From contig JAUNLF010000002.1 of the NCBI GenBank assembly GCA_030532405.1, positions 62,001 to 126,000 on the forward strand: a DNA stretch of 64,000 nucleotides, read 5' to 3'. Shown here piece after piece: positions 1,954-26,336 of the stretch (positions are counted from its first letter, which is position 1; each line of letters opens with the position of its first letter). Under the pieces are notes generated by a model. It searched no databases. It worked only from the letters and a program-made list of their open reading frames with translations, and was not told the DNA's origin. Made by a program: the position numbers and the translations under genes. The stretch is from Actinomycetaceae bacterium (GTDB taxonomy: Bacteria; Actinomycetota; Actinomycetes; Actinomycetales; Actinomycetaceae).

Positions 1954-2829
1954 ATGATTGATAACGCTGGGCATCTAATGTCCGGGGGAAGCGACGTGGC
2001 TGTCGCCAGGGCTGTCGGCGTTGACGACAACATGGTGAGCTCCCATTCTCACCATTATTTTGAGATCTATTATCTTCGAAGTGGTCAGCGATACCACGTG
2101 ATAGAAGATCACCTGCACCTCATCAAATCTGGCGAGTTGATTATTTTCCCGCCCTACTTGATGCATCACTCATTTGGTGACAAAGGTGTGGGGTTTGACC
2201 GCTATGTGCTTTACTTCAGCCCTGAAGTGGTTGCGAGCGCGAAGTTGTTGAACAGGATTCGGAATGCGTCCAATAGTTACAGTTTTGATGGGCCAGAAGC
2301 GCGTCGTGTAGAGGATATCTTTGGTCGTTTAGATGGGGTCCAACAGCGCGGTGATGAATTTGCTGCTGTCGAAATGCGATTGCTTGTTAATGAGCTTTTG
2401 ATCGGTATGGCTCGCCAAGAACCTAGCAATACGGAAGTTGAACGTCGCGATCGAGTTGCGGAGGTTGTCCGCTACCTTCATGACAATCACTGCCAGCAAC
2501 TCCGCCTAGAAGATATTGCGGAAGAGTTCTATGTCAGCCAGTACCACCTGTGCCGCGAGTTCAAGAAGTTTACAAAATCAACCGTGATGCAGTACTTGAA
2601 CAAGATTAGGATCGGACAAGCGCAGCGGTTGCTAGACGAGACTGATCTGAATGTGACACAAATTTCTGAGCGTGTCGGATTCGTGAACGTCACCCATTTC
2701 AATCGCGTGTTTAAACAGATTACGGGGATGGCTCCGCTTTCGTATAAGAAAGCGCATACCTTAAGGTACGCATCCCGCTGTGGAGGCGAGTATAGCGGTG
2801 CGGCCTTCGCTGACACTTACAATTTGTAA
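1954..2829 (+). CDS. AraC family transcriptional regulator
   Basis: One-component regulator with an N-terminal cupin-type sensor (roughly residues 20-100, with the His-rich HSHHYFEIYYLRSG segment and PYLMHHSF) and a C-terminal pair of helix-turn-helix motifs (LRLEDIAEEFYVSQYHLCREF and NVTQISERVGFVNVTHFNRVFK, the AraC signature). I place the start at ATG 1954 because the alternative GTG at 1921 lies inside an inverted repeat. About 290 residues is normal for the family. The sensor type is usual for sugar or organic-acid regulators, and the preceding TRAP transporter genes are the obvious candidate target. The effector is unknown. Confidence 0.88.
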   Translation: MIDNAGHLMSGGSDVAVARAVGVDDNMVSSHSHHYFEIYYLRSGQRYHVIEDHLHLIKSGELIIFPPYLMHHSFGDKGVGFDRYVLYFSPEVVASAKLLNRIRNASNSYSFDGPEARRVEDIFGRLDGVQQRGDEFAAVEMRLLVNELLIGMARQEPSNTEVERRDRVAEVVRYLHDNHCQQLRLEDIAEEFYVSQYHLCREFKKFTKSTVMQYLNKIRIGQAQRLLDETDLNVTQISERVGFVNVTHFNRVFKQITGMAPLSYKKAHTLRYASRCGGEYSGAAFADTYNL

Positions 2830-2867
2830 GTCTAAGTGAGACTGTGAGTGTAAGTCTTTGTAAGTCT
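2816..2867. repeat. 15-bp palindrome and three GTAAGTCT repeats
   Basis: CTTACAATTTGTAAG (2816-2830) is a perfect odd palindrome overlapping the AraC stop codon. GTAAGTCT occurs at 2826, 2850 and 2860. This could be an operator array for the downstream gene or for autoregulation. No known motif was recognised. Confidence 0.4.
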
Positions 2868-2967
2868 GTCGCACTTCCGTGCCAAGTGGGAATGTTTGCG
2901 AGACAATAGGGGAGTGACCCCAGCCACGTCCGCGTGTGTTTGTGGTATCTGTTAGGAGATGAGTTCT

Positions 2968-3606
2968 ATGAGTGATCGTCCACGTTTCCGGCGCCCCGCC
3001 ATGCTTAGTTTTGAAGATGCTGAAAAGATTGAGGGCGATGATGACCCCGCTGCAGCGTCTCAAGTGGCTATGACATCTGCGCGAGCACTCCTTGGCCTCA
3101 GTGATGAAGAGTTTGGCCCGAATGCTGTCGAAAACCTCGTGTCCGCTATTGAGGAAGAGGGCGTTGACATTGTGGCTGACCTTTGGGAGCGTAGCCCCGA
3201 GTTCACGCTTCCGGGCGCGTTTTGGCGTCTCTACTTGTTCAACGAGTGGTACCAGCGCGACACGCTTACCGTTCACCAGCGTTACAAGGAAGGCCTGAAC
3301 GCCCCGTTTACCGCCGGAATCGACGATGCTGACCCGAAGCCGGAAGCCCCGGACGCTGAGGAAGTATTCGGCCGGGTCAACAACCTGATGAAGGGCCGCG
3401 AGTTTGGCGACCTCACCAAACTACTGCGCGATAGCGCCCTCGTAATGCGAATTTTGGCGTCTGGCGCCACGTTCGGAACCACGTGGATTCGTTCCGACAA
3501 GGACAGGCTGGCAAACATGGTTACGCGCCGTGCGTCCGCGCTCATTGAAACCGCAGAAGAACTCGACACAGCCGCGGACCGTTCCGAAGCTGGCCGTCTA
3601 ATTTAA
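2968..3606 (+). CDS. Conserved hypothetical protein upstream of ppk
   Basis: A soluble acidic protein of about 212 residues with no signal peptide or membrane segment and no motif I recognise. The start at ATG 2968 is preferred over ATG 2959 because AGGAG (2954-2958) sits 9 nt upstream of it. The protein is rich in Glu/Asp and alternates helices such as NAVENLVSAIEEEGVDIVADL and AFWRLYLFNEWYQRD. It ends 40 bases before ppk on the same strand, so the two may be cotranscribed. No function is assigned. Confidence 0.75.
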   Translation: MSDRPRFRRPAMLSFEDAEKIEGDDDPAAASQVAMTSARALLGLSDEEFGPNAVENLVSAIEEEGVDIVADLWERSPEFTLPGAFWRLYLFNEWYQRDTLTVHQRYKEGLNAPFTAGIDDADPKPEAPDAEEVFGRVNNLMKGREFGDLTKLLRDSALVMRILASGATFGTTWIRSDKDRLANMVTRRASALIETAEELDTAADRSEAGRLI

Positions 3607-3646
3607 ACTCCCAAAAGCACGTTCATTTCCCTGAAAAGGACCCGCG

Positions 3647-5965
3647 ATGCCCGAAAACAATGACCCCCAGTCCATACCAGTCACAAATATTGACGTTGAT
3701 TCCGTAGTCAAACCCGACATGCCCGAGGGCGTGCCTGCTGACGGCGACGGTGAAAAGGACAGTCCGTTTGCTTCGCCCGAACAGCGTGACATGTTCATCC
3801 TGGAGCAGTCGGAAAAGGCGCAGCCCGAAAAGGATCCACTGCCCGAAGGGCGTTTCGCCGACCGTGAACTGTCGTGGATGCGTTTCAACCAGCGCGTACT
3901 GGAGCAGTCCGAAGATACGGAGCTGCCACTGTTGGAGCGCGCGTGGTTCTCAACAATCTTCTCGTCAAACCTGGACGAGTTCTACATGGTTCGCGTTGCC
4001 GGCCTGAAACGCAGGATCGCGGCGGGTATCGCGAAGGTTGCCGCGTCGGGGCTCACGCCGCGCCAGGTTCTGGAGGGCATCACCGAACAGGCGCGCGAAC
4101 TCACGTCCCGCCAAGTTGAGCACTTCCACCAAGAACTCCTGCCCCTGCTTCACGCCGAAGGCCTACACCTGCGCGAGTGGGAGGAACTAAACCCGGAACA
4201 GCAAGAAGCGCTCACCCGCTACTTCCGTAAGCAAATCTTCCCCGTCCTCACGCCGCTCGCGGTGGACCCATCCCACCCGTTCCCTTACATTTCGGGCCTG
4301 TCCCTCAACCTTGCCGTCGTGGTCCTAAACGAAGCCACCGGTAAGAACCATTTCGCGCGCGTCAAGGTGCCGCCCTCGCTGCCGCGCCTGATCAACGTGG
4401 AATCCGTGATGCCTCGCTTTGAGGGCACCGCCCCCGAAGACCTTGCGGCAACCAAGCAGGGAACGAACTTCATTTCGCTCGAGCAGGTCATCGCCGCGCA
4501 CCTCGACGCCCTCTTCCCGGGAATGAAGGTCGTTGAATCGCATACCTTCCGCGTCACGCGTAACGAGGATCTTGAGGTCGAAGAGGACGATGCGGAGAAC
4601 CTGTTAACCGCGATGGAGCACGAACTACTTCGCCGTCGCTTCGGGCCCGCTGTACGCCTGGAAGTCGCTGAAGACATTTCCGAGTCCGTCCTCAAATTCT
4701 TGGTACAACGCCTCGAAATCACCGAACAGGACGTCTTCAAGCTGCCCGAGCCGCTCGACCTGACAGCGTTGAACGACCTCCACGAACTGGATTTGCCGCA
4801 CCTGAAGTACCCCAAGTACGTGCCGGTAACCCCCAGTGGCCTCGCCGAGTACGAATCTGCGCGCGCCGGCGACATTTTCGCATCGATTCGTAACCACGAC
4901 GTGCTGCTACACCACCCGTACGACTCGTTCTCAACTTCAGTGCAACACTTCGTTGCGACCGCGGCGAAAGACCCGAAGGTGCTCGCAATCAAGCAGACGC
5001 TGTACCGCACGTCCGGCGATTCGCCAATCGTGCAAGCGCTAATCGACGCGGCGCAAGCAGGCAAACAAGTGGTTGCGATCGTAGAGATCAAGGCGCGTTT
5101 CGACGAGGAAGCCAACATCTCGTGGGCGCGCAAACTCGAACGCGCCGGCGTTCACGTCGTGTACGGCATGGTCGGCCTCAAAACCCACTGCAAACTGTCA
5201 ATGGCGGTACGTCAAGAATCTGACGGCCTGCGCCGCTACTGTCACGTCGGCACCGGCAACTACCACCCGAAGACCGCCCGCGGCTACGAGGACCTCGGCC
5301 TGCTCACGTGCGACCGCGACGTGGGCCAGGACCTCACGCGCCTGTTCAACCAGTTGTCCGGCTACGCGCCGCGAACCACGTTCCACCGCCTGCTCGTCGC
5401 CCCCATGTCGATCCGTTCGGGCCTCATCGAACGCATCGAACAGCAAGTTGAACGCCACAAACAAGGCAAGGAAGCGTACATCGGCATCAAGGTTAACTCC
5501 ATCGTCGATGAGGCCGTGATTGACGCTCTATACCGCGCTTCGCAGGCAGGTGTCCACGTTGACCTGGTCGTCCGCGGTATTTGCGGCATTCGCGCCGGGG
5601 TTCCAGGCCTGTCCGAGAACATCCGAGTCCGCTCAATCCTGGGCCGCTACCTGGAGCACTCGCGAATCTACTGCTTCGGCCCGGCCGGGGAAGAGGAAGT
5701 ATGGATCGGATCGGCCGACCTCATGCATCGAAACCTTGATCGCCGCGTAGAAGCACTGGTTCGAATCACTGACGAAGGCCAAATCGGATACCTCGCCAAG
5801 CTGCTGCGTACGGAAGCGTCCGACGAAGTCGCATCCTGGCACCTGCGCCCCAACGGACAGTGGGTCCGCCACACGCACGGTAAGAAGGGCAAGCGCCTGA
5901 TGGACATTCAAGAGCTACTCATGAAGAACGCGTCCAGCCGAGTTAAAGGGCGAAAGGTTTTCTAG
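3647..5965 (+). CDS. ppk: Polyphosphate kinase 1
   Basis: PPK1 reversibly polymerises the gamma-phosphate of ATP into inorganic polyphosphate. The 772-residue protein has the family order: an acidic N-terminal extension of about 65 residues, the N domain starting near [16 protein letters not shown], the head domain, and two phospholipase-D-like catalytic domains. The autophosphorylated-histidine region is visible as [19 protein letters not shown], and the nucleotide/metal region as [13 protein letters not shown] and [26 protein letters not shown] lies 9-14 nt before the ATG. The gene heads a phosphate-metabolism stretch (mutT1, pst, pit), and its degradative partner ppx is at 41.6 kb. Confidence 0.98.
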
Positions 5966-5982
5966 CCCGGACCTCAAACATT

Positions 5983-6077
5983 GAGTACGGACAAATCTGA
6001 GATTCTAGCGGATCCGTGAAAGCTTCCACCGTGCGGGGCGCGGAACCGATAGAATCGAATCAGATTTGTCCGTATTC
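5983..6077. repeat. Long inverted repeat between ppk and the NUDIX gene
   Basis: A 15-bp exact inverted repeat, TACGGACAAATCTGA (5986-6000) against TCAGATTTGTCCGTA (6060-6074), extends imperfectly to 5983-6006 and 6051-6077. The arms enclose about 45-59 bases that are themselves GC-rich and can partly fold. No T-run follows, so it is not an ordinary terminator. It could be an operator pair, a small MITE-like remnant or an mRNA-stability element. Confidence 0.6.
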
Positions 6078-6149
6078 GCTCTACTCCACAACTAGATACA
6101 CACCCCGAAACAGGGGTCCAGTGGGGTACCAAAAGTTTGAAAGATCACC

Positions 6150-7187
6150 GTGGCTAAGTTCCGTCCAAGCCCAGTACCTAGCCGTATCGTGCGGTCAGCG
6201 GGCGCCGTTGTTTGGCGACCGCGAAACGTGCACGCCCCGGTCAGGGTGGGCCAGACCTACGGGCCAGACGACATTGAAGTCTTGCTCGTACATCGCCCTC
6301 GTTACGATGACTGGTCCTGGCCCAAAGGCAAAGCTGAAATCAACGAACCCCTACTCGCGGCCGGCGTGCGCGAGGTAGAAGAAGAAACCGGCGTGCTCGT
6401 ACAAATGCACGCCCCCCTAATGACCCAGCGGTACCGCCTCGGGTCCGGTCAAACTAAAGAAGTGCACTACTGGATCGGAGTTCCAGTTCGACACGGGGGA
6501 GTGGAACGCTCGCGCATTCCAATCGTCCCCGCGACGCCAAAAGAAATCGACACGACACGTTGGATGACCGCACCCCACGCGCGCAAAATGCTCACCCGCC
6601 GCGGAGACAAACGCCTCCTCGACGACGTTGTCGCCCGCGCCCAAACAGGCACGCTAGTCACCCAAACACTTGCCATCGTCCGCCACGGCGCAGCAATAAC
6701 CCGCAACCAGTGGATAGGAACCGAGGCGGCTCGGCCCCTCAACCGCACTGGCGGAGTGCAGGCGCTCGACCTCGTAGACATATTTTCTGCACTCGGCGTG
6801 ACGCGTCTACTTTCAAGCCCGTGGACGCGTTGCAGGGCGTCCTTAGAACCCTACGCAACCGTCGCAAACCTCGGGCTAGTCACCGCGGAGGAACTCACCG
6901 AAGACTCCACGCGCCGAGACCCGTACGCCGCATCCGAAGTCATCCGACGGCTACTACAACGGCCAGCCGAGCCCGTCGTAGTTTGCGGACACAGGCCCGT
7001 CCTCCCCGCAATGATGGAACCAATCCGGCAAATAAGCTCAAACCAAATGGCCCGAGAACTGCCCTCCGAAGACCCATTCTTGCGAACCGCGGAACTCATG
7101 GTCTCGCACGTCGCGTACCCAAGCGAAAACAATGGACAACCCCAAATTGTGTCCATTGAGTACCACCGAACCATAAAACGCGTGTAA
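6150..7187 (+). CDS. mutT1: NUDIX hydrolase fused to histidine phosphatase (MutT1-like)
   Basis: A two-domain protein of 345 residues. The N-terminal half is a NUDIX hydrolase with a complete box (G-KAEIN-E-PLLAAGV-REVEEETGV, near residues 60-82). The C-terminal half is a histidine phosphatase with the catalytic RHG (IVRHGAA), the SSPWTRC motif and a second-His segment VVCGHRP. In mycobacteria this fusion, MutT1, removes 8-oxo-dGTP and diadenosine polyphosphates. Position directly after ppk is the common actinobacterial arrangement. The start is GTG at 6150 with a weak upstream purine stretch. Confidence 0.93.
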   Translation: MAKFRPSPVPSRIVRSAGAVVWRPRNVHAPVRVGQTYGPDDIEVLLVHRPRYDDWSWPKGKAEINEPLLAAGVREVEEETGVLVQMHAPLMTQRYRLGSGQTKEVHYWIGVPVRHGGVERSRIPIVPATPKEIDTTRWMTAPHARKMLTRRGDKRLLDDVVARAQTGTLVTQTLAIVRHGAAITRNQWIGTEAARPLNRTGGVQALDLVDIFSALGVTRLLSSPWTRCRASLEPYATVANLGLVTAEELTEDSTRRDPYAASEVIRRLLQRPAEPVVVCGHRPVLPAMMEPIRQISSNQMARELPSEDPFLRTAELMVSHVAYPSENNGQPQIVSIEYHRTIKRV

Positions 7188-7209
7188 TGTGACCCAAATC
7201 GTTATGGAA

Positions 7210-7231
7210 GTTAACGCAGTGTTCACCTGAA
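7210..7231 (+). promoter_or_regulatory. PHO-box-like direct repeat upstream of pstS
   Basis: Two adjacent 11-nt units, GTTAACGCAGT (7210-7220) and GTTCACCTGAA (7221-7231), match the GTTCACC-type direct repeats bound by PhoP/RegX3 response regulators in actinobacteria. A weaker third unit follows. The site lies about 110 bp before pstS, as expected for phosphate-starvation control. Confidence 0.6.
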
Positions 7232-7341
7232 ACTGATTGGAGTGTAACTTTACGTCGATAACGTCATACCGGTTGCACCAGCAACCTTCCCCTCTATGGC
7301 GAACCGCCTGGGAACATACCTAGTCGAATAGGAAAAACGAC

Positions 7342-8472
7342 GTGAAGAACCTCCGACTCTCTCGAGTTGCCCTTGCGTTCGGCGCGGGCTCACTAGCATT
7401 CGCTTTGACTGCCTGCGGCTCTGATAATGCCGTTCCGAACACCGAGAACGAAGAAACCCCGGAAGAGACCGCTGCGGAAGCCACTGGCGAAGAGCTCTCG
7501 GGTAGCCTCGCAGGTGCAGGCGCTTCCTCGCAGGAAGCCGCGATGAACGCATGGATCGCTAAGTACCAGGGTGTACAGCCCGGCGTTACCGTCTCCTACG
7601 AGCCCGTTGGCTCGGGTGCTGGCATCACCCAGTTCATCGACAAGCAGGTTGCTTGGGCAGGCTCCGACGCCGTCCTCGAAGGCGACGAAATCACCGCTGC
7701 TGAAGAGCGCTGTGGTGGCCCGGCCATCAACCTCCCCGTCTACATCTCCCCGGTTGCAGTTATCTTCAACCTTGAGGGCGTTGACAACCTGAACATGGAT
7801 GCCGAGACCATCGCTAAGGTCTTCGCTGGCGAGATCACCAACTGGAACGACCCGGCCATTGCCGACCAGAACCCGGATGTTGAGCTGCCCGACCTGGCAA
7901 TCACCCCGGTTCACCGTGCTGACAAGTCCGGCACCACCGAAAACTTCACCGACTACCTGAACAAGGCTGCCCCGGAGGCATGGCCGCACGAGCCCGACAA
8001 GGCATGGCCGATTGAGGGCGGCGAGTCCGGTGACAAGACCGCAGGCCTAGTCCAGGCTGTTAACCAGGGTGAAGGCACCATTGGTTACGCTGACGCTTCG
8101 CAGGCTGGCGACCTCGGTACCGTAGCTCTGCAGGCTGGCGACGGCTACATCGCATTCTCCAACGAGGCTGCTGCTACCGCTGCTGACGCAGCTGAGCGCG
8201 TTGAGTCCGGCGTTGAGGGCGACCTTGGCCTAGAGGTCAACCGTAAGCCCGAGGATGCTGGCGCATACCCGATGGTTATGATCTCCTACGCCATCGTCTG
8301 CACCACCTACGAGGACGAAGAGACCGCTAACCTGGTCAAGGACTTCATCGGCTTCCAGGTATCCGAAGAGGGCCAGGCAGCAGCTGAAGAAGCCGCTGGC
8401 TCCGCACCTCTGTCCAGCACCATGCGTGACGAGGTCATGAAGTCGCTCGATATGATCGGGGCGGCTCAGTAA
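7342..8472 (+). CDS. pstS: Phosphate ABC transporter substrate-binding lipoprotein
   Basis: PstS captures inorganic phosphate outside the membrane and passes it to PstCA. The N-terminus is a lipoprotein signal with lipobox LTAC-G (Cys at about residue 28), followed by an acidic linker. The mature part has PstS motifs: GAGASSQEAAMNAWI, SVxYEPVGSGAGITQF, WAGSDA and HRADKSGTTENFTDYL. Length (376) fits the family. The GTG start at 7342 has AGGAAA about 7 nt upstream. It is the first gene of a compact pstSCAB operon, and a PHO-box-like repeat lies upstream. Confidence 0.97.
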   Translation: MKNLRLSRVALAFGAGSLAFALTACGSDNAVPNTENEETPEETAAEATGEELSGSLAGAGASSQEAAMNAWIAKYQGVQPGVTVSYEPVGSGAGITQFIDKQVAWAGSDAVLEGDEITAAEERCGGPAINLPVYISPVAVIFNLEGVDNLNMDAETIAKVFAGEITNWNDPAIADQNPDVELPDLAITPVHRADKSGTTENFTDYLNKAAPEAWPHEPDKAWPIEGGESGDKTAGLVQAVNQGEGTIGYADASQAGDLGTVALQAGDGYIAFSNEAAATAADAAERVESGVEGDLGLEVNRKPEDAGAYPMVMISYAIVCTTYEDEETANLVKDFIGFQVSEEGQAAAEEAAGSAPLSSTMRDEVMKSLDMIGAAQ

Positions 8473-9402
8473 ATGAAAAACACCGGGAAGGTCGGTAACA
8501 AGATCTTCCGGTCAGGCTCAACCGCAGCGGCGGTCACGATTCTCGTGACCCTCGCTGCGGTGGCCGCGTTTCTAATCATTCAGGCCTGGCCGGCAATCAG
8601 CGATCCGAGTGTTCGAGTTCGAACCGTTGGTAGCGCCGAACAACTTAATATTTGGCAGTTCACCGCACCCCAGATTTTCGGTACGGTACTTGCAGCTGTT
8701 CTGGCAATGCTCCTAGCGGTCCCCCTCTCGATCGGAATCGCCCTATTCATCAGTCACTACGCGCCTAAGCGACTCTCCCAGAGCCTGGGATACCTAGTCG
8801 ACTTACTTGCGGCCATCCCCTCCGTTGTCTACGGCCTGTGGGGCGCAATGTGGCTCATCCCTAAACTCGTTCCCCTCTACGATTGGCTCGCAACCTACTT
8901 AGGCTGGTTCCCGCTATTCGCGCCCCCGGTTTCCTCAACCGGTCGCGTTATCGCGTCAGCCTCCTTGATCCTCGCTGTAATGATCCTTCCGATCATCACT
9001 GCGGTGGCTCGCGAAGTCTTCCTCCAGACACCTAAAGCGCATGAAGAAGCAGCCCTAGCTCTGGGCGCAACCCGTTGGGAAGTTATCAGGATGGCTGTTC
9101 TTCCCTTCGGCCGCTCCGGCATTATCTCCGCCTCCATGCTCGGCCTTGGCCGCGCGCTTGGCGAAACGATGGCTGTGGTGATGGTCCTTTCGGTTGGATC
9201 GAGTTACTCATTCAACATTTTGCAAGCAGGAAAGCACTCCACGATCGCGGCGAACATTGCACTGCAGTTCCCCGAATCGACCGGTGTTGACAGGTCCGCG
9301 TTGATCGCGACCGGTCTGGCCCTGTTCGCAATCACGATGGTGGTTAACATGATCGCTCGTTGGATCATCTCTCGCCGTGCAGAGTTCTCAGGAGCTAACT
9401 GA
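8473..9402 (+). CDS. pstC: Phosphate ABC transporter permease PstC
   Basis: Inner-membrane permease subunit pairing with PstA. It has about six helices and the ABC-permease cytoplasmic loop (EEAALALGATRWEVIRMAVLP). The start codon directly abuts the pstS stop (TAAATG), and the stop overlaps the pstA start (TGATG at 9400-9404), so translation is tightly coupled. At 309 residues it has normal length. Confidence 0.97.
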   Translation: MKNTGKVGNKIFRSGSTAAAVTILVTLAAVAAFLIIQAWPAISDPSVRVRTVGSAEQLNIWQFTAPQIFGTVLAAVLAMLLAVPLSIGIALFISHYAPKRLSQSLGYLVDLLAAIPSVVYGLWGAMWLIPKLVPLYDWLATYLGWFPLFAPPVSSTGRVIASASLILAVMILPIITAVAREVFLQTPKAHEEAALALGATRWEVIRMAVLPFGRSGIISASMLGLGRALGETMAVVMVLSVGSSYSFNILQAGKHSTIAANIALQFPESTGVDRSALIATGLALFAITMVVNMIARWIISRRAEFSGAN

Positions 9403-15976: not shown

Positions 15977-16102
15977 AGGTCTGAGCGCGCAGGCGTTCTT
16001 CTAAGTGTGAGCTATATGTCTTGGTGTGGGCGCTGTTGGGTCAAGTTTTGTGGAAAATCGTTTAGCAAGTCCGATTTTCTGTGATATCTGTATAAATGCC
16101 TG

Positions 16103-16118
16103 CAGGACTTAAGTCCTG
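16103..16118. promoter_or_regulatory. 16-bp perfect palindrome in the pilus leader
   Basis: CAGGACTTAAGTCCTG, an uninterrupted 16-bp palindrome just after a TATAAA (16091-16096). It may be an operator or a loopless mRNA stem. No known regulator motif is matched. Confidence 0.5.
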
Positions 16119-16176
16119 TTGTGATTATCGTTGCGTTACTTTCGGTGCTTAAAAATTGATAGAGGAGGCGAGAGCA

Positions 16177-18939
16177 GTGCACTGCGTGCGTAGACGGATT
16201 GCTGCGTTGACGGCGACATTCTTGTCGCTCGCTCTTGCACTCCCATTTTCCATGGCGGGTGCGCAGGAACAACCATCTGAGACAACTTCGCCTTCTTCCC
16301 AATCGACTGTTGAATCAGATTCCTCCGATAGCTCTGTACCTCTTGAAAGCGTCGGTACGGATCCTGAAGCCACCGAGTTACCGGTAGCTGAAGAGGGAAC
16401 ATCCGCTAGCCCAGAAGATTTAGAGGATCTAGAGGTCTCTGGTGAAGAAGAAACCTCTTACGCGGTGCGTAGCTCTGCTGATGCCAGGGCAGATGGGTAT
16501 GTGCCGAACACCGGAATCCTAGGTTTGGAAACTCACGGCCTGATGTGGGATCTCGAGCTAAAAGACCACGTGGATCCGGCAGACTTCAAGGTAGATCCCA
16601 GTGGTTATATTGCTGTTGAGCCCATGACCATGACCGATTATGGCACCAACGGTGGTCTAACCCCTCAGCAGCAGAAAGATATTTTCAACAATGCTGCGGG
16701 CGCGAATCTAATCCGACGCAACGATGGTTTGAGCCGAGACAAAGAAAATTTTGGCCAACTTTGGGGATTCCTGACCGGATCCGGGTCGGGCGTGCATGAT
16801 GGGCGTTACACAAAGTCGGGCCCCGTGTTTTTGATGTCCTCTGGCGGTTATAACCAGACCTGGAAGCCTGAATATTTGGTGTTGGTAGAAAACCTGGGAG
16901 TCGAGCTTAAAGCCGGGGCAGCTTACGACGGTAGATATTTCTTTGGCGGGTTCTACTACAAGGATAATAAGGCAAGTCAAGCAAGGTTCCGAGTTTTTGA
17001 GTACAACCCAACGGCTCAACGGTATCCGGTACGAATTTTAGGGGATCTTCCTGTGGGTATGCCTTCCACGCAGGGGTCGGCAGGCATGGAGTTTGATGCG
17101 CAGGGCAACCTTTACATTCTGGTTGCCAGTCGGTTCTTTGGGGCAGAGAAGAAAAACCACGTCAACCTCTACAAGGTATCTGCAAGCGTTCTAGAGAATC
17201 GCTGGCAGAGTGCAAGGTTTGGATACGAAGGTACTGCGAACTCGAAACTGCAAACCTACTTCACGGATCTTACGACGAATAAGCAGGTGTCTTGGCCGGC
17301 GAGCGAAATGTACCAAGTGGCGTCACTAAACGAAGTGTCAACCTCGTTTGCTAACGCGGCTCCTTATCAAACGTTTAAGAATATGCCGCTCCCTTATGAC
17401 GTTCAAGGATTTGCGTTTGGGCGGGATGGTTCTATTTTTATCCAGTACAACTTCGACCCGTACTGGGGGAATCTCCAGGATTTTGACGAAGGGAAGATAG
17501 TTGATGTTCCTTTGTCGTCGTTTATCCGCTCGTATCCCTTGGTTTTCAACACCGGCACTACAGCTGTTGTAGAACAGTCTCAAAGCAGGATCGTTTTTGC
17601 CAGCCCGCGTTTCCCCTCTTCGGAGATTAAGGAGATTGACGGTGGCGGGTATGGCCCGACGTTTGAAGTGAAGAAGGTTGTTGAAAATAGGGTCGCGCTG
17701 GAAGACTAGTTTACGTTTGGTTGGAGCGCGCCCAGCGGGAATGAGTTCGTCGACGTCGCTTCGGGTGTCACTTATTACTCTGACGACGACCCCCAAGGGA
17801 AGGGACCTTTTGCTACTAAAGAAGGGCCTTTAAGTATTGGTGGTGGCGTAAAGGTTAGGGTCTGGGAAGAACTGCCTGAAGAGAACTATGACGAATATAA
17901 GCCCTATCTGCACTGTAGTTTCGACGAAGACGGCACAAAACGCACGCCGTACATTCTTGATAGAACGAGAATCGGCTGGGACGTTGAGCTTAATGCTTCC
18001 GGTGCTAGTGAGTGTACGATCACGAACCGGGTTCCCAGCGGAGGCATGCAAATTCTGCACGAGTGGGCATACCCTTCCGGCGTTCTAGACGGTACTACAG
18101 GTCCGCTTGAGGGCACGCAGTTCACGGTTCCTGCCTCGCCAGGCACTCCGGTTGTAGGAGACCCGGCTGACACGCTTACCACCGCGGCCAGCGGCTACAC
18201 CACGGAGATCGACAGGCGGCCAGGCGACTACCAGGTCACCATGCCGGAACTCCTACCGGGCTACTACAATCGCGTCCTCACTTACACGACCAAGACTCGT
18301 GAGGTGAGAGCCCCGGGGACCGTGACCGTGCTAGAGGATCAAACAACCGTCCAGCGCGTTACAGACATTCGCAAGACAGGCACCCTTACTTGGCAGAAGG
18401 TCGATGCTTCGGATAAACGCCGGCTACTGGCTGGTTCCAAGTGGAAGCTGACCAGGACGCCTGACCAGGAGTACGGCGGAGAATTTGCGCTGGAGGTCGC
18501 GGACGTTTGCGAAGACACGTGTCCTGAGGGCGTAAAAGACGTGGACACGCGTGCCGGCTACCTGAAGGTTAACAACTTGCCTTGGGGAGTGTACGAACTT
18601 GTAGAAACCGAGGCTCCCGCGGGCTTCGTCGCCGACAGCACGCCAATCACCCTGTACTTCGGCCCCGCAGACACGGCGCCGGCTGATCTTCCCGAGAAAT
18701 ATCACCAATCCACAGTTGGTGACAAAGAGCTCCTCATCTCTCTTGTCGATGAGGAGACAGCACAGAACGCTGTTCCAAACAAGCAGCAACAAGTACCTAG
18801 CTTGCCGTTCACGGGAGGTATCAGTAGGGATGCCTTCCTGATCGGTGGAGCAATCGTCCTGGCCCTCGCAACCATCGCTCACCTCACCTCGAGACCAAAG
18901 CGGTACGCAACCGGCCGACACACACTACACAAAAAATAA
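16177..18939 (+). pseudogene. Large pilus tip/adhesin protein interrupted by an in-frame TAG
   Basis: One continuous reading frame of 920 positions is broken only by TAG at 17707-17709 (codon 511). Upstream is a signal peptide (MHCVRRRIAALTATFLSLALAL) and a large extracellular region. Downstream, in the same frame, it continues with pilin-type beta domains, an E-box-like LVETEAPAGF, an LPFTG sorting signal, a hydrophobic segment and a basic tail. Because the anchor lies after the stop, normal termination would release an unanchored 510-residue fragment. AGGAGG-type site (16163-16168) lies 8 nt before GTG 16177, which beats the TTG at 16156. CAG to TAG is the simplest cause (VALED-Q-FTFGW). 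Gene order tip-shaft-sortase matches SpaA-type pili of actinomycetes. A sequencing error or natural readthrough remains possible. Confidence 0.85.
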
Positions 18940-18961
18940 ACAACACCAAGAAAGGTAAATC

Positions 18962-20494
18962 ATGCAAAATCCCACAGTGCGGAGGCGAGTAGCTGGCCTG
19001 TTCAGCCTCCTACTTGCTGCGATCATGACGCTTGCAGTGTTTGGAATGTCTCCGGCACTGGCAGCGGATACGACTGAGGTAGCCAGCGGCAATATCAACG
19101 CGAGCCAAAAGGGTTCTCTAACCATTCACAAGTATGCGGAGCCGAAAACCGGCAACGATAACGACGGTCGGGAGATCACAGGTGGTCTACCGAAAAACAC
19201 TGCACTTGACGGCGTCACCTTTGACGTACAAAAGGTTGAAGGTATTGACATTGCGACCGACGCCGGATGGAAGCTCATCAAGGAGCTCGTTGGCAAGACC
19301 TCTATCGACGGGGTCCCGGCTGACGGCACTACGCAACTTACCCTCGGCAGCGCAAAGTCGGTAACGACCGCTAACGGTGGCAAGGCGATGCTAACCGGAC
19401 TTGACCTGGGCGTGTATCTAGTCACGGAAACGGGTGACGAGGGTGGTAACAACATTACGTCTAAGGCCGCTCCGTTCTTCGTGACGATCCCATTCCCCGA
19501 CGCGAAGGAAGCGAGCGGTTGGAACTACGACGTTCACGTGTACCCGAAGAACTCCGTGACTAGCGCCGAGAAGGTTGTTGAAGACACCGACGCAGTTAAG
19601 GTTGGCGACCAGCTGAAGTGGCACGTCTCCTTCATGATCCCCGAAGGCGACGACCTTAAGTCTTTCGAGATCACCGATAAGCTCGACCCGAAAACCGAGT
19701 ATGTTTCTGCGACCGCGCAGATCGTTCCCGCTGGAACCACCATTCCAGTACCTGACAACGTTACCGGCACCTCTGTAAAGCCGACCTTGACTTGGGGCGA
19801 GTACTCCGGAACCACCAAGCAGGATCTCTCCGCCAAGTTTGAGGAAGATGCCCTCACCACGCTCAATGCCAACAAGGGTGAGAAGGTTGTACTCACCATT
19901 GTTGTCGAGGTTAAGAAGATCGAGGGTGACGGCGAGATTACGAACCCGGACGCACAGGGTTGGTTCAATGATCCTAACCACTCCAGCACTTCCGTAACGC
20001 CGGAGAAACCTGAGACTTCAAGCTGGGGCAAGTTCCAGATCTTCAAGTACGCTTCGAATGATAAGGGCGCGACAAAGCTGGCTCTTGACGGCGCAGTCTT
20101 TGACATCTACGCAGAGGCAGCTCTTCAGGAAGACGGAACCTTCAGCGGCGATCCGTTGTACACGGTTACCACCGCCAACGGGGGCCTCGCCCAGGTAGAT
20201 GGCCTCAAGTTCGGCACCTACTACGTAGTTGAGACCCAAGCTCCCGCAGGCTACGAAATCAACAAGACAAAGACCAAGGTTGAGGTCATCGGTGTTAACA
20301 AGATCAAGATCAACGACAAAGAGGGCACGCTCGTCGAGATCGAGAACAAGAAGGCAACCCCGGGTACCGACCTGCCTGAGCTGCCGCTTACCGGTGCTTC
20401 CGGCACGCTCCTCCTTACCCTCGGAGGCGCTGCCCTGATCGCACTCGCAGTAGGCACGTTCTTTGTAGGCGCACGCAACAAGTCGCGCGACTAA
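18962..20494 (+). CDS. Major pilus shaft subunit (SpaA/FimA-type, LPLTG)
   Basis: Backbone pilin polymerised by the downstream sortase and then attached to the cell wall. The 510-residue precursor has a signal peptide ending near ALAAD, the pilin motif YPKN with the linking Lys at about residue 196, CnaB-type domains expected to carry isopeptide bonds, an E-box YYVVETQAPAGYE, and a C-terminal LPLTG at about residue 474 followed by a hydrophobic helix and a basic tail. AAAGG precedes the ATG. It follows the tip gene by 22 bases and is separated from the sortase gene by a strong hairpin. Confidence 0.96.
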   Translation: MQNPTVRRRVAGLFSLLLAAIMTLAVFGMSPALAADTTEVASGNINASQKGSLTIHKYAEPKTGNDNDGREITGGLPKNTALDGVTFDVQKVEGIDIATDAGWKLIKELVGKTSIDGVPADGTTQLTLGSAKSVTTANGGKAMLTGLDLGVYLVTETGDEGGNNITSKAAPFFVTIPFPDAKEASGWNYDVHVYPKNSVTSAEKVVEDTDAVKVGDQLKWHVSFMIPEGDDLKSFEITDKLDPKTEYVSATAQIVPAGTTIPVPDNVTGTSVKPTLTWGEYSGTTKQDLSAKFEEDALTTLNANKGEKVVLTIVVEVKKIEGDGEITNPDAQGWFNDPNHSSTSVTPEKPETSSWGKFQIFKYASNDKGATKLALDGAVFDIYAEAALQEDGTFSGDPLYTVTTANGGLAQVDGLKFGTYYVVETQAPAGYEINKTKTKVEVIGVNKIKINDKEGTLVEIENKKATPGTDLPELPLTGASGTLLLTLGGAALIALAVGTFFVGARNKSRD

Positions 20495-20504
20495 CAAAAC
20501 CAAC

Positions 20505-20539
20505 CTGTGGGGACAGTGCCACGCGCACTGTCCCCACAG
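20505..20539 (+). terminator. Strong hairpin between pilin and sortase genes
   Basis: Perfect 15-bp stem CTGTGGGGACAGTGC / GCACTGTCCCCACAG with a 5-nt loop and no T-run. It ends 14 bases before the sortase start. It likely lowers sortase expression relative to pilin or protects the pilin mRNA 3' end, rather than fully terminating. Confidence 0.7.
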
Positions 20540-20553
20540 TCCACGGAGAAACC

Positions 20554-21468
20554 ATGCGCATACTCGTCATGCGGATCATCACAGCAATCCTCGCCCTCCT
20601 CGGAGCGGGGCTTTTCCTATACCCATACACCGCGTCATGGATCTCCCAATACCACCAGTCCCGCGAAATCGACGCCTACGTATCCGGCATCGAAAACATC
20701 GAACCCGCACGTCAAGAACAAATCGCCCAAGCGCACAAATACAACGAAGCCCTCCGCTCCGGCGCAAACCTCCTCCCCGGCCAGCGCAAACCAATAGCCG
20801 ACAGCGCAATCGACGAACGCCTCACCAAAGACCTCTGGCCCTACGAGGAAATCCTCAAAGCCGACAGCAACGGTATGATCGGCCGACTCCAAATACCAAG
20901 CATCGACGTCGACCTCCCCATCCAACACGGCACCAGTGAAGCCACCCTCCGCAAAGCCGTCGGACACCTCGAAGGAACCTCCTTCCCCGTCGGAGGTGGC
21001 GGAACCCGCACAGTCCTCACCGCACACCGCGGCCTCCCCTCCGCCACACTGTTCAACAACCTCGACAAAGTCAGCGAAGGTGACCTCTTCACCGTCGAAA
21101 CCTTCGGCGAAATCCTCACCTACCGCGTCATTCACACCCAAGTGGTACAACCCGAAGACAGCGAAGCCGTCCGCGCCGTCCCCGGCGAAGACCTCGCTAC
21201 CCTCGTCACCTGCACCCCCCTCGGTATCAACAGTCACCGCATCCTCGTCACCGGCGAACGCGTATATCCGAACCCCGAAGGAACCCCAGAACCGGGCGAA
21301 ACATCAGACCTCCCACGCTTCCCCTGGTGGGCTGTCGGCGTAGTCGTAACCCTCATCATCGTGGTCGCGCTTGTCTATTCAGGAGTACGGCAGTACAGAA
21401 AACAAAAAAATACGGCAGAAAATGCTGAAACGCGCCGGAAATCTGAGTCAACCCCGCACGCCTCGTAA
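20554..21468 (+). CDS. srtC: Class C (pilus-specific) sortase
   Basis: Membrane transpeptidase that links pilin monomers. It has an N-terminal helix (residues 7-24), a catalytic core and a C-terminal helix (about 257-278) with a basic tail, the class C layout. The catalytic triad is visible: His158 in LTAHRGLP, Cys220 in TLVTCTPLGIN and Arg229 in SHRILVTGER. No DP(F/W/Y) lid triplet is found anywhere; the corresponding stretch reads KDLWPYEEIL. GGAGA precedes the ATG. It completes the tip-shaft-sortase cluster. Confidence 0.95.
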   Translation: MRILVMRIITAILALLGAGLFLYPYTASWISQYHQSREIDAYVSGIENIEPARQEQIAQAHKYNEALRSGANLLPGQRKPIADSAIDERLTKDLWPYEEILKADSNGMIGRLQIPSIDVDLPIQHGTSEATLRKAVGHLEGTSFPVGGGGTRTVLTAHRGLPSATLFNNLDKVSEGDLFTVETFGEILTYRVIHTQVVQPEDSEAVRAVPGEDLATLVTCTPLGINSHRILVTGERVYPNPEGTPEPGETSDLPRFPWWAVGVVVTLIIVVALVYSGVRQYRKQKNTAENAETRRKSESTPHAS

Positions 21469-23793: not shown

Positions 23794-23858
23794 AAACGCG
23801 ACATCGGGCCGTGCGGCCTCTAGTGTGGACTTAGTACAGTTTGCAGGAGGACCAATTC

Positions 23859-26336
23859 ATGTTCGAACGGTTTACAGACCGCGCGCGCCGCGTTGTTGTG
23901 CTGGCGCAGAATGAGGCCCGCAACCTCAACCACAATTACATCGGGACGGAGCACCTGCTGCTCGGCCTGATTCAAGAGGGTGAAGGCGTTGCCGCTAAAG
24001 CCCTAGAAATGATGGGCATCGAACGCGACGCCGTGCGCGAGGCCGTCATTGAAATGATCGGCAAGGGCTCACAGACGAACACGGGTCACATCCCGTTCAC
24101 GCCGCGCGCAAAGAAGGTCCTCGAGCTGTCCCTGCGCGAAGCCCTGCAGCTCGGCCACAACTACATTGGCACCGAACACATGCTTCTTGGCCTCATTCGT
24201 GAGGGCGAGGGCGTTGCGGCGAAGGTCCTCATCGAACTTGGGGCTGACTTGTCGCAGGTGCGTGAAACCGTGATTCAGTTGCTGCGCGGCTATCAGCGTC
24301 AGTCCGGTGGTGGGCGCGAGTCTGTTGGTGCGGGCGCTCCGATGCGCGATCGCCAGCAGTCGAATTCTGCGATTTTGGAACAGTTTGGTCGCTCTCTGAC
24401 GAACGCTGCTCGCGAAGGCTCCCTTGACCCGGTCGTTGGGCGACTAACCGAGATGGAACGCGTAATGCAGATCCTGTCGCGTCGCACCAAGAACAACCCG
24501 GTGCTCATCGGTGAGCCCGGCGTTGGCAAGACCGCTGTTGTTGAAGGCCTAGCGCAGGCGATCATCCGCGGGGACGTGCCCGAAACGCTGGCTGATAAAG
24601 AGATCTACTCCCTGGACATGGGCTCGCTGGTTGCGGGTTCACGCTACCGCGGTGACTTCGAAGAGCGCCTAAAGAAGGTGCTGAAGGAAATCCGTTCGCG
24701 CGGCGACATCATCTTGTTCATTGACGAGATCCACACGCTAGTTGGCGCGGGCGCCGCGGAAGGCGCAATCGACGCGGCACAAATCCTAAAGCCGATGCTT
24801 GCGCGCGGTGAGCTCCAGACGATTGGTGCAACCACTTTGGAGGAGTACCGCAAGCACATTGAAAAGGACGCCGCCCTGGAGCGCCGCTTCCAGCCCGTAA
24901 AGGTTGAGGAGCCCACGGTTGAAGAGACCATCTCGATCCTGAAGGGTCTGCGTGACCGCTACGAGGCGCACCACCGCATCATCATTTCCGATGAGGCACT
25001 GGCCGCCGCCGCACAGCTTGCCGACCGTTACATTTCCGACCGCTTCATGCCCGACAAGGCAATCGACCTTGTTGACGAGGCCGGCGCCCGCATGCGCATT
25101 CACCGCATGACCGCGCCGCCGGAGCTTCGCGAACTTGACGAGCGCATCTCCAAGGTCCGCCGCGACAAGGAGTCTGCGATCGACGAGCAGGACTTCGAAC
25201 GCGCAGCCTCCGCACGCGACCTGGAGCAGCAGCTCATGAAGGAACGCGAAGAAAAGGAAGCGTCCTGGAAGTCCGGCGACATGGACACGATCGGGGAGAT
25301 CGGCGAGGAAGAAATCGCTGAAGTTCTCGCAATGTCCACGGGCATCCCCGTCGTCAAGCTGACCGAAGCCGAGTCGCAAAAGCTCCTCCACATGGAAGAC
25401 GAGCTCCACAAGCGCATCATCGGTCAGGAAGACGCTGTGCGCGCACTGTCCCAGTCGATTCGACGCACCCGTTCCGGCCTTAAAGACCCGAAGCGCCCCG
25501 GCGGTTCGTTCATCTTCGCCGGTCCGACCGGTGTTGGTAAGACCGAGCTTGCCAAGACGCTTGCCGAGTTCCTGTTCGGCGACGAAGACGCCCTCATCCA
25601 ACTGGATATGTCGGAGTTTTCTGAAAAGCACACGGCATCGCGACTATTCGGTGCGCCTCCGGGATACGTTGGTTACGACGAGGGTGGCCAGTTGACCGAG
25701 AAGGTTCGCCGTCGCCCGTTCTCCGTGGTCCTATTTGACGAGGTCGAGAAGGCGCACGCCGACATCTTCAACTCGCTACTGCAGATCTTGGAAGATGGCC
25801 GACTGACCGACTCGCAGGGTCGCGTCGTGGACTTCAAGAACACGATCATCATCATGACCACGAACCTGGGTACGCGTGACATCAACAAGGGTGTCATGAC
25901 GGGCTTCCAGGCTGAGGGCGCGATGGCGAACGACTACGAGCGCATGAAGCAGAAGGTGAACGAGGAGCTGAAGCAGCACTTCCGCCCCGAGTTCCTGAAC
26001 CGTGTCGACGAAACTATCGTCTTCCCGCCGCTGGAGAAGGATCAGATCGTACGCATTGTCGACCTGATGATCGCCCAGCTTGCCGAGCGCATGAAGGACC
26101 AGAACATGGCCCTCGAAATGACGCAGGACGCGCGCCTGCTCTTGGCGGATAAGGGCTTCGATCCGGTGCTTGGCGCCCGACCGTTGCGTCGCGCGATCCA
26201 ACGCGAGATTGAAGACATGCTTTCGGAGAAGATCCTCTTCGGCGAAATCAAGACGGGCGATACCGTCATTGTCGACGTTGAGGGCGCTGAGGGCGAGCGT
26301 CGTTTCACCTTCACTCCGAAGCGTGACGAAGACTAG
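23859..26336 (+). CDS. clpC: ATP-dependent Clp protease ATPase subunit ClpC
   Basis: HSP100 unfoldase that feeds substrates to ClpP. The order of domains is: N-terminal double Clp-N repeat (residues 1-145), AAA-1 with Walker A GEPGVGKT and Walker B LFIDEIH, middle region with a UVR-like segment ([21 protein letters not shown] region), AAA-2 with Walker A GPTGVGKT and Walker [11 protein letters not shown], and the ClpP-binding VGF-like loop region. The start ATG 23859 has AGGAGG (23845-23850) upstream; 825 residues is standard. A terminator follows. Confidence 0.98.

What the first reader, a model, noticed from the sequence alone, without database searches (positions are those of the whole stretch)
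17700..18045. Pilus tip adhesin split by a single in-frame amber codon
The frame from GTG 16177 to 18939 is intact except for TAG at 17707-17709. Sequence on both sides reads as one pilin-type surface protein, and the LPFTG anchor lies only after the stop. The shaft pilin and sortase are intact, so the strain would make pili without the anchored tip protein and could release a 510-residue soluble fragment. CAG to TAG would restore VALED-Q-FTFGW. It could be a recent loss, phase-like variation between strains, readthrough, or a base error.
Basis: partly seen in the sequence, partly recalled or inferred. Interest (0 to 1): 0.8.

Follow-up and report, generated by a model that had tools for sequence, protein, structure and literature searches.

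The report
Pilus tip gene cut by stop
A gene for the sticky tip of a bacterial surface hair carries one stop signal in its middle, so the tip's binding part is probably made without the part that fixes it to the cell; this is most likely an ordinary loss of function, although some relatives look as if they switch the same gene on and off.

Summary
The frame GTG 16177 to 18939 is open except for TAG 17707-17709. Before the stop lies a 510-residue part with signal peptide and beta-propeller; stalk and LPFTG anchor lie only after it. Nine intact relatives of 843-997 aa run through the junction, and the two window parts match consecutive stretches of their profile. TAG is a real stop here: RF1 is present, none of 47 tRNA hits reads CUA, and 9 of 41 other window genes end in TAG. 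No readthrough structure was found. Best reading: a recent nonsense allele that removes the anchored tip. Slippage switching is unlikely for this gene (no G/C run of 7 or more in the window). In relatives it may be common: 13 of 14 G/C runs of 8 or more in 39 chosen family loci cluster at propeller tip genes. Whether tipless pili form is open: in Actinomyces oris, losing both tip pilins abolishes the shaft (PMC11389406, passage). A base error cannot be excluded without reads or strains. New member of a known kind; modest interest, with the family tracts the better lead.

The parts
16163..16168 (+). ribosome-binding site (AGGAGG), 8 nt before GTG 16177
   Evidence: sequence read; assignment by eye
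16177..17709 (+). N-terminal fragment of the tip adhesin, 510 codons and TAG
16177..16263 (+). Sec signal peptide, 29 residues (positively charged start, hydrophobic core, AGA before the cut)
   Evidence: by eye from the translation; no predictor run
16537..17706 (+). beta-propeller (Kelch-like) domain, ending at the last codon before the stop
   Evidence: profile match 16-294 of 294, E 3.7e-75 (this sequence is one of the ten rows of the profile); propeller folds among PDB profile matches; weak Kelch and propeller Pfam hits in up to 3 of 10 rows, none for the window row
17707..17709 (+). internal in-frame TAG
17710..18939 (+). C-terminal part of the former gene: 409 codons, stalk domains and anchor, no secretion signal of its own; first in-frame ATG/GTG/TTG is ATG 18046
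18379..18654 (+). SpaA prealbumin-like fold domain; K230, E299 and N357 of the C-part are invariant in ten rows
18802..18849 (+). LPFTG sorting signal followed by FLIGG, similar to the FLIAG motif of Actinomyces oris tip pilins
   Evidence: sequence; motif from PMC11389406 (abstract and passages)
18962..20494 (+). shaft pilin, SpaH/EbpB family, LPLTG
20505..20539 (+). perfect 15-bp hairpin between shaft pilin and sortase genes
   Evidence: z -6.4
20554..21468 (+). class C (pilus) sortase

Best explanation
The locus is a three-gene sortase pilus operon (tip adhesin, shaft pilin, class C sortase) of a member of the Actinomycetaceae. Its tip gene carries a nonsense allele. Shown: one frame, one stop, both parts homologous to consecutive stretches of intact relatives. 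Inferred: translation from GTG 16177 ends at codon 511 and yields a signal-peptide-bearing propeller that is exported and, lacking the LPFTG sorting signal, is not joined to the pilus. The stalk and anchor part is not made as a surface protein, because it has no start with a secretion signal. The tip is therefore lost. The shaft and sortase may be made less because about 1.2 kb of untranslated message follows the stop, and tip loss may also prevent the shaft from starting. The mutation is recent or still segregating in the species, since no further stop or frame break has gathered in the 409 codons after it.
For: Frame and stop. Profile of nine intact relatives: N-part matches positions 233-425 up to residue 508 of 510; C-part matches 448-532 (weak, 8.3 bits) and 679-873 (133 bits). 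The seven relatives found by the N-part are hit by both parts in BLASTP, 7 of 7, each as a single open frame with the N-part hit before the C-part hit (small database of 212 frames). Columns conserved in at least 8 of 9 relatives kept by the window: 15 of 20 before and 34 of 48 after the stop. The best GC3 break in the frame is at 18160, about 450 nt after the stop (log-likelihood ratio 6.7, reached by 17 of 2000 shuffles; 3.0 at the stop itself). TAG works as a stop: RF1 over cut-off, no CUA anticodon among 47 tRNA hits, 9 of 41 other window genes (picked by me) end in TAG, and the gene 23841-26336 (clpC by recall) ends in the same nine bases GAAGACTAG. The sorting signal of a tip pilin is needed for tip incorporation in Actinomyces oris (PMC11389406, abstract and passages).
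Against: No reads, no second strain and no transcript or protein data, so a base error or a colony-level variant is not excluded. The window row keeps the smallest share of conserved columns of ten rows in both parts, and the gap to the others is larger after the stop (0.71 against 0.86-0.97) than before it (0.75 against 0.79-1.00). This could mean some decay after the stop, or only distance. Of 30 columns identical in all nine relatives after the stop the window has lost 5; before it, 4 of 16.
Confidence: 0.72

Rival explanations
1. Sequencing or assembly error, or a variant that arose in the sequenced colony: the strain's gene is intact.
For: A single stop with everything else intact is what an error looks like. 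The assembly is a draft of 33 contigs. The bacterial population was not sampled.
Against: There is no homopolymer at the site, where short-read substitution errors are rare (general knowledge). One imperfect 25-nt direct repeat (80%) ends 11 nt before the stop, its partner lying in the shaft gene. Completeness 99.7%, contamination 1.07%.
Confidence: 0.13
2. A strain-level on/off polymorphism under selection: the tip is a contingency function, and nonsense alleles are one way to be off.
For: Broken or out-of-register tip genes recur in relatives: signal-peptide frame and propeller frame out of register at G/C runs in G194, G190, G067, G192 (signal peptides judged by eye), frame breaks at G/C runs in G074 and G150, a transposase-like gene inside the propeller in G064. 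In Bifidobacterium breve the first gene of two sortase pilus clusters depends on slippage at a G-tract (PMC9187656, abstract and passages).
Against: The window gene has no tract, so its switch would need a point reversion; no strain data.
Confidence: 0.08
3. Readthrough or recoding of the amber codon makes a fraction of full-length anchored tip.
For: The stop is followed by an intact coding frame.
Against: No CUA anticodon; no pyrrolysyl-tRNA synthetase over cut-off, best 21.9 against 178 bits; RF1 present; RNA after the stop folds no better than shuffles, z 0.3 and 0.6; the nine relatives have no stop there.
Confidence: 0.04
4. The short product is the selected form: a secreted free propeller acting as a soluble binding protein.
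For: The stop lies at the propeller/stalk border, the fragment has a signal peptide (by eye), and the propeller match ends at the last codon.
Against: One case; the downstream frame is kept. Of the four frames under 600 aa among 85 matches in 63 genomes, the other three lie at a contig end or stop 31 nt before one.
Confidence: 0.03

Closest known systems
[quoted passage not shown] PMC11389406, abstract and passages)
   Same: Two-pilin plan (tip and shaft) with a pilus sortase; tip sorting signal with a FLIAG-type motif (here FLIGG)
   Different: The tip gene here is interrupted; no alternative tip like CafA was found; homology of this propeller to FimB, FimQ or CafA was not tested
Bifidobacterium breve sortase pili switched by a G-tract (PMC9187656, abstract, outline and passages)
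   Same: First gene of the operon has its secretion signal and its LPXTG anchor in separate open frames
   Different: There an intragenic G-tract decides the frame; here a nonsense codon and no tract
Winkia neuii propeller-tip pilus operon (L022/L104)
   Same: Tip, shaft and sortase in order; propeller plus stalk plus LPFTG; collinear with both window parts (27% identity N-part; 25% C-part)
   Different: Tip of 942 aa is intact

Membership tests
sortase-assembled pilus operon | LPXTG shaft pilin with pilin domains | tested here: met
   NF033902 2.1e-94, GramPos_pilinD1 1.5e-23
sortase-assembled pilus operon | class C sortase in the cluster | tested here: met
   NF033745 3e-74
sortase-assembled pilus operon | pilus seen or polymer ladder on gels | not testable with these tools
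   needs the strain
anchored pilus tip adhesin | signal peptide and sorting signal in one open frame | tested here: not met
   TAG 17707-17709 between them
anchored pilus tip adhesin | tip-type sorting signal (FLIAG motif) encoded in the locus | tested here: met
   FLIGG at 18835-18849, 4 of 5 letters. Of 19 anchor hits in the genome (many of them chance at E up to 5), 15 had a locus; all 15 tails were read (six minus-strand ones again) and only this one has the motif; 4 of 19 were not read
pseudogene by nonsense mutation | intact homologues extend collinearly past the stop | tested here: met
   9 of 9 relatives examined; they were chosen as open frames found by N-part hits (7) or C-part hits (2)
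pseudogene by nonsense mutation | loss of expression or function | not testable with these tools
   no transcript or protein data
slipped-strand phase-variable gene | repeat tract in or before the gene | tested here: not met
   no G/C run of 7 or more in 64 kb; in 16000-18959 the longest homopolymer is A6 at 18931 and the only short tandem is four AC at 18918, both at the gene's far end
amber recoding (pyrrolysine or suppressor) | CUA tRNA and PylRS | tested here: not met
   assembly 99.7% complete

The most novel reading that the evidence does not exclude
In the Actinomycetaceae the propeller-tipped pilus is a contingency system whose tip gene is repeatedly switched or locked off (G/C tracts before the gene or between signal peptide and propeller, insertions, nonsense). 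The window allele is a locked state cut at the propeller/stalk border that exports the free propeller as a soluble binding protein.
Probability: 0.1. Interest if true: 0.65.

Novelty: new member of a known kind. Interest (0 to 1): 0.35.

Why it matters
A nonsense-interrupted surface adhesin gene is common in kind. It matters for two reasons: it predicts that this strain either lacks this pilus type or makes it tipless, which bears on whether a tip pilin is needed to start a shaft; and it led to a pattern in relatives (tracts and breaks in propeller tip genes) that makes switching of Actinomycetaceae pili testable.

Tried and rejected
Named or same-species strains: scans of genome contigs with the N-part and with the intact Winkia protein, plasmids and genus genomes (1 of 11, the window itself) gave no second strain; the tools say that records near the window's own genome may be left out. 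A structure model of the N-part from two sequences was too poor to use (mean pLDDT 36.5), so no fold search was made; the propeller assignment rests on profiles. Readthrough structure: rejected. Other tip genes in this genome: the C-part finds only itself and, weakly, the shaft (0.0018); a second operon (shaft plus sortase at C8) shows no tip gene among ORFs of 230 aa or more in 11 kb. Short frames in other genomes (G155, G012, G077) were looked at as parallel cases and set aside: G155 and the second G077 frame are cut by contig ends, and the G012 frame stops 31 nt before one. The first split of the homologue alignment was wrong and was redone with the junction placed by hand; only one search is used. 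In one search six minus-strand loci were read on the wrong strand; they were read again. Literature: searches for interrupted pilus tip genes listed 9, 0, 7 and 1 papers; passages of five of these were seen (PMC5536039, PMC8088525, PMC12445087, PMC3078919, PMC2830990) and none describes such a case. A find in the group A Streptococcus pili review (PMC7900414) returned no passage on truncation. Passages of PMC3164646 and PMC8235330 show only that pilus genes vary or are missing in related actinobacteria.

Full report
What is there. A tip-shaft-sortase operon lies at 16177-21468. The tip gene reads from GTG 16177 (AGGAGG 8 nt before it) through 510 codons to TAG 17707-17709, and the same frame continues for 409 codons to TAA 18937-18939. 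No stop interrupts those 409 codons; 0 of 5000 simulated sequences with the same base neighbours did as well. The part after the stop has a SpaA prealbumin-like domain (3.8e-16) and an LPFTG sorting signal. The shaft pilin and class C sortase are complete.

What the gene was. The N-part alone finds, besides itself, 8 of 213 genomes of the family at E up to 0.001. One of these, G196, is a hit to the signal-peptide region only and was dropped; the other seven have open frames of 897-1006 aa. Both window parts hit these seven frames, the N-part before the C-part (BLASTP against 212 frames of 11 loci). A profile of nine intact relatives (these seven plus two from G005, same genus, chosen by C-part hits) matches the N-part at 233-425, up to residue 508 of 510, and the C-part at 448-532 (weak) and 679-873. 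In all nine the frame runs through the junction. One relative is Winkia neuii DSM 8576, identical over 942 aa, family Actinomycetaceae.

Domains. The N-part profile finds beta-propellers among solved structures: designed repeat propellers (Pizza, 2.8e-07, score summed over repeats), Kelch proteins (KLHDC2, 0.003) and diisopropyl fluorophosphatase (0.03) among 64 matches up to E 1. Weak Kelch and propeller Pfam families appear in up to 3 of 10 rows, none for the window row itself. The propeller match ends at the last codon before the stop (the window is one of the ten rows of that profile). The stop is therefore at the domain border, within a conserved junction. K230, E299 and N357 of the C-part are invariant in ten rows; that such a triad forms an isopeptide bond in Cna-B-type domains is recalled, not tested.

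Does TAG stop here. RF1 is present over its cut-off. Of 47 tRNA hits, ARAGORN gave anticodons for 46, none CUA; the 47th is cut by a contig end and its anticodon loop reads CTTTTAA, a lysine tRNA by eye. No pyrrolysyl-tRNA synthetase passes its cut-off. Nine of 41 other window genes, picked by me, end in TAG, and the gene 23841-26336 (clpC by recall) ends in GAAGACTAG, the same nine bases as here. RNA after the stop is not structured beyond shuffles. The first in-frame start after the stop is ATG 18046, without a signal peptide.

Age of the break. Columns conserved in at least 8 of 9 relatives and kept by the window: 15 of 20 before, 34 of 48 after the stop. The window row is the lowest in both parts, more so after the stop, so slight decay is possible. 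The best GC3 break is not at the stop but about 450 nt later (0.53 to 0.66 at 18160; log-likelihood ratio 6.7, 17 of 2000 shuffles as strong; 3.0 at the stop), so the propeller and first stalk region share a composition that differs from the anchor end. This fits a mosaic gene and fits both sides of the stop having one history (inference).

Consequences. In Actinomyces oris the sorting signal with its FLIAG motif is necessary and sufficient for tip placement, and deleting both tip pilins (fimB and cafA) abolishes FimA shaft assembly while deleting either does not severely diminish it (PMC11389406, abstract and passages). Here the motif reads FLIGG and lies after the stop. No other tip gene was found in this genome: the C-part finds only itself and, weakly, the shaft; the second operon at C8 shows a shaft and a sortase only; and of 19 anchor hits the 15 with a locus were read and only the window's has the motif, 4 being unread. 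Polarity on the shaft and sortase is inferred by analogy with B. breve, where the authors hold that the frame of the first gene limits expression of the downstream genes (PMC9187656, passage).

Relatives. A profile search of the family gives 85 matches in 63 of 213 genomes; some matches are two stretches of one frame. Four frames are shorter than 600 aa: the window, two cut by contig ends (G155, G077) and one that stops 31 nt before a contig end (G012). Other breaks exist: G064 has a transposase-like gene (by recall; no family scan) inside the propeller, G074 and G150 change frame at runs of eight G and seven C, and in G194, G190, G067 and G192 the signal-peptide frame (by eye) and the propeller frame are out of register at runs of 9-10. 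In 39 family loci (307,325 bases; 36 with a propeller frame) there are 14 G/C runs of 8 or more; 13 of 14 lie within -900 to +1100 of a propeller start, zones that cover 25.6% of the bases (binomial tail 2.1e-07). This number is indicative only: the zone limits were set after seeing the positions, and I chose the loci (11, 8 with short frames, 20), not all 63 genomes. 11 of the 36 loci carry such a run in the zone, 25 do not. Shorter loci (starting at the frame, so without promoters) added no further gene with a run of 8. Drafts can miscount homopolymers. In B. breve, G-tract slippage deciding sortase pilus expression is supported by experiment, though the authors say that they give no direct evidence of the pilus proteins (PMC9187656, abstract and passages). 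The window gene has no tract, so its state is not a slippage state.

Verdict. A real split of a pilus tip adhesin gene in the sequence as given, best read as a recent nonsense allele, with a base error as main rival. Ordinary in kind; the pattern in relatives is the more interesting lead.

Noticed in passing
L024, L142, L143, L144, L151, L154, L155, L156, L159, L163, L164 (same family): G/C runs of 8-15 sit before propeller tip genes, between signal peptide and propeller, or in the stalk: 13 of 14 such runs in 39 chosen loci. Looks like slipped-strand switching of pilus tips; no such report for this family appeared among the papers listed (10 of 33 shown; 8 of 11; 3 of 3; 10 of 56).
   Followed up: partly
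L141 (G064:C2:296000-304000), 2606-6791: Propeller tip gene split by a 438-aa transposase-like ORF (4390-5706 +; IS256-like by recall, no family scan).
   Followed up: partly
L030 (G008:C26, same genus), 3606-8632: C-terminal remnant of a different tip-type protein (360 aa, FLIAG) beside an IS110 transposase fragment, and a sortase that seems split over two frames (upstream piece by eye): this pilus looks decayed.
   Followed up: partly
window 20505-20539: Perfect 15-bp hairpin between shaft pilin and sortase genes (z -6.4), without a T run on the + strand; single copy in the window. May set sortase level or protect the message.
   Followed up: no
window 16177-18936: GC3 step at about 18160 (0.53 to 0.66): propeller and first stalk region differ in composition from the anchor end and the neighbours.
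   Followed up: partly
L100 (G000:C8:107500-118500), 4017-6649 -: Second pilus operon of the same genome: shaft pilin 549 aa and class C sortase, no tip gene seen.
   Followed up: partly
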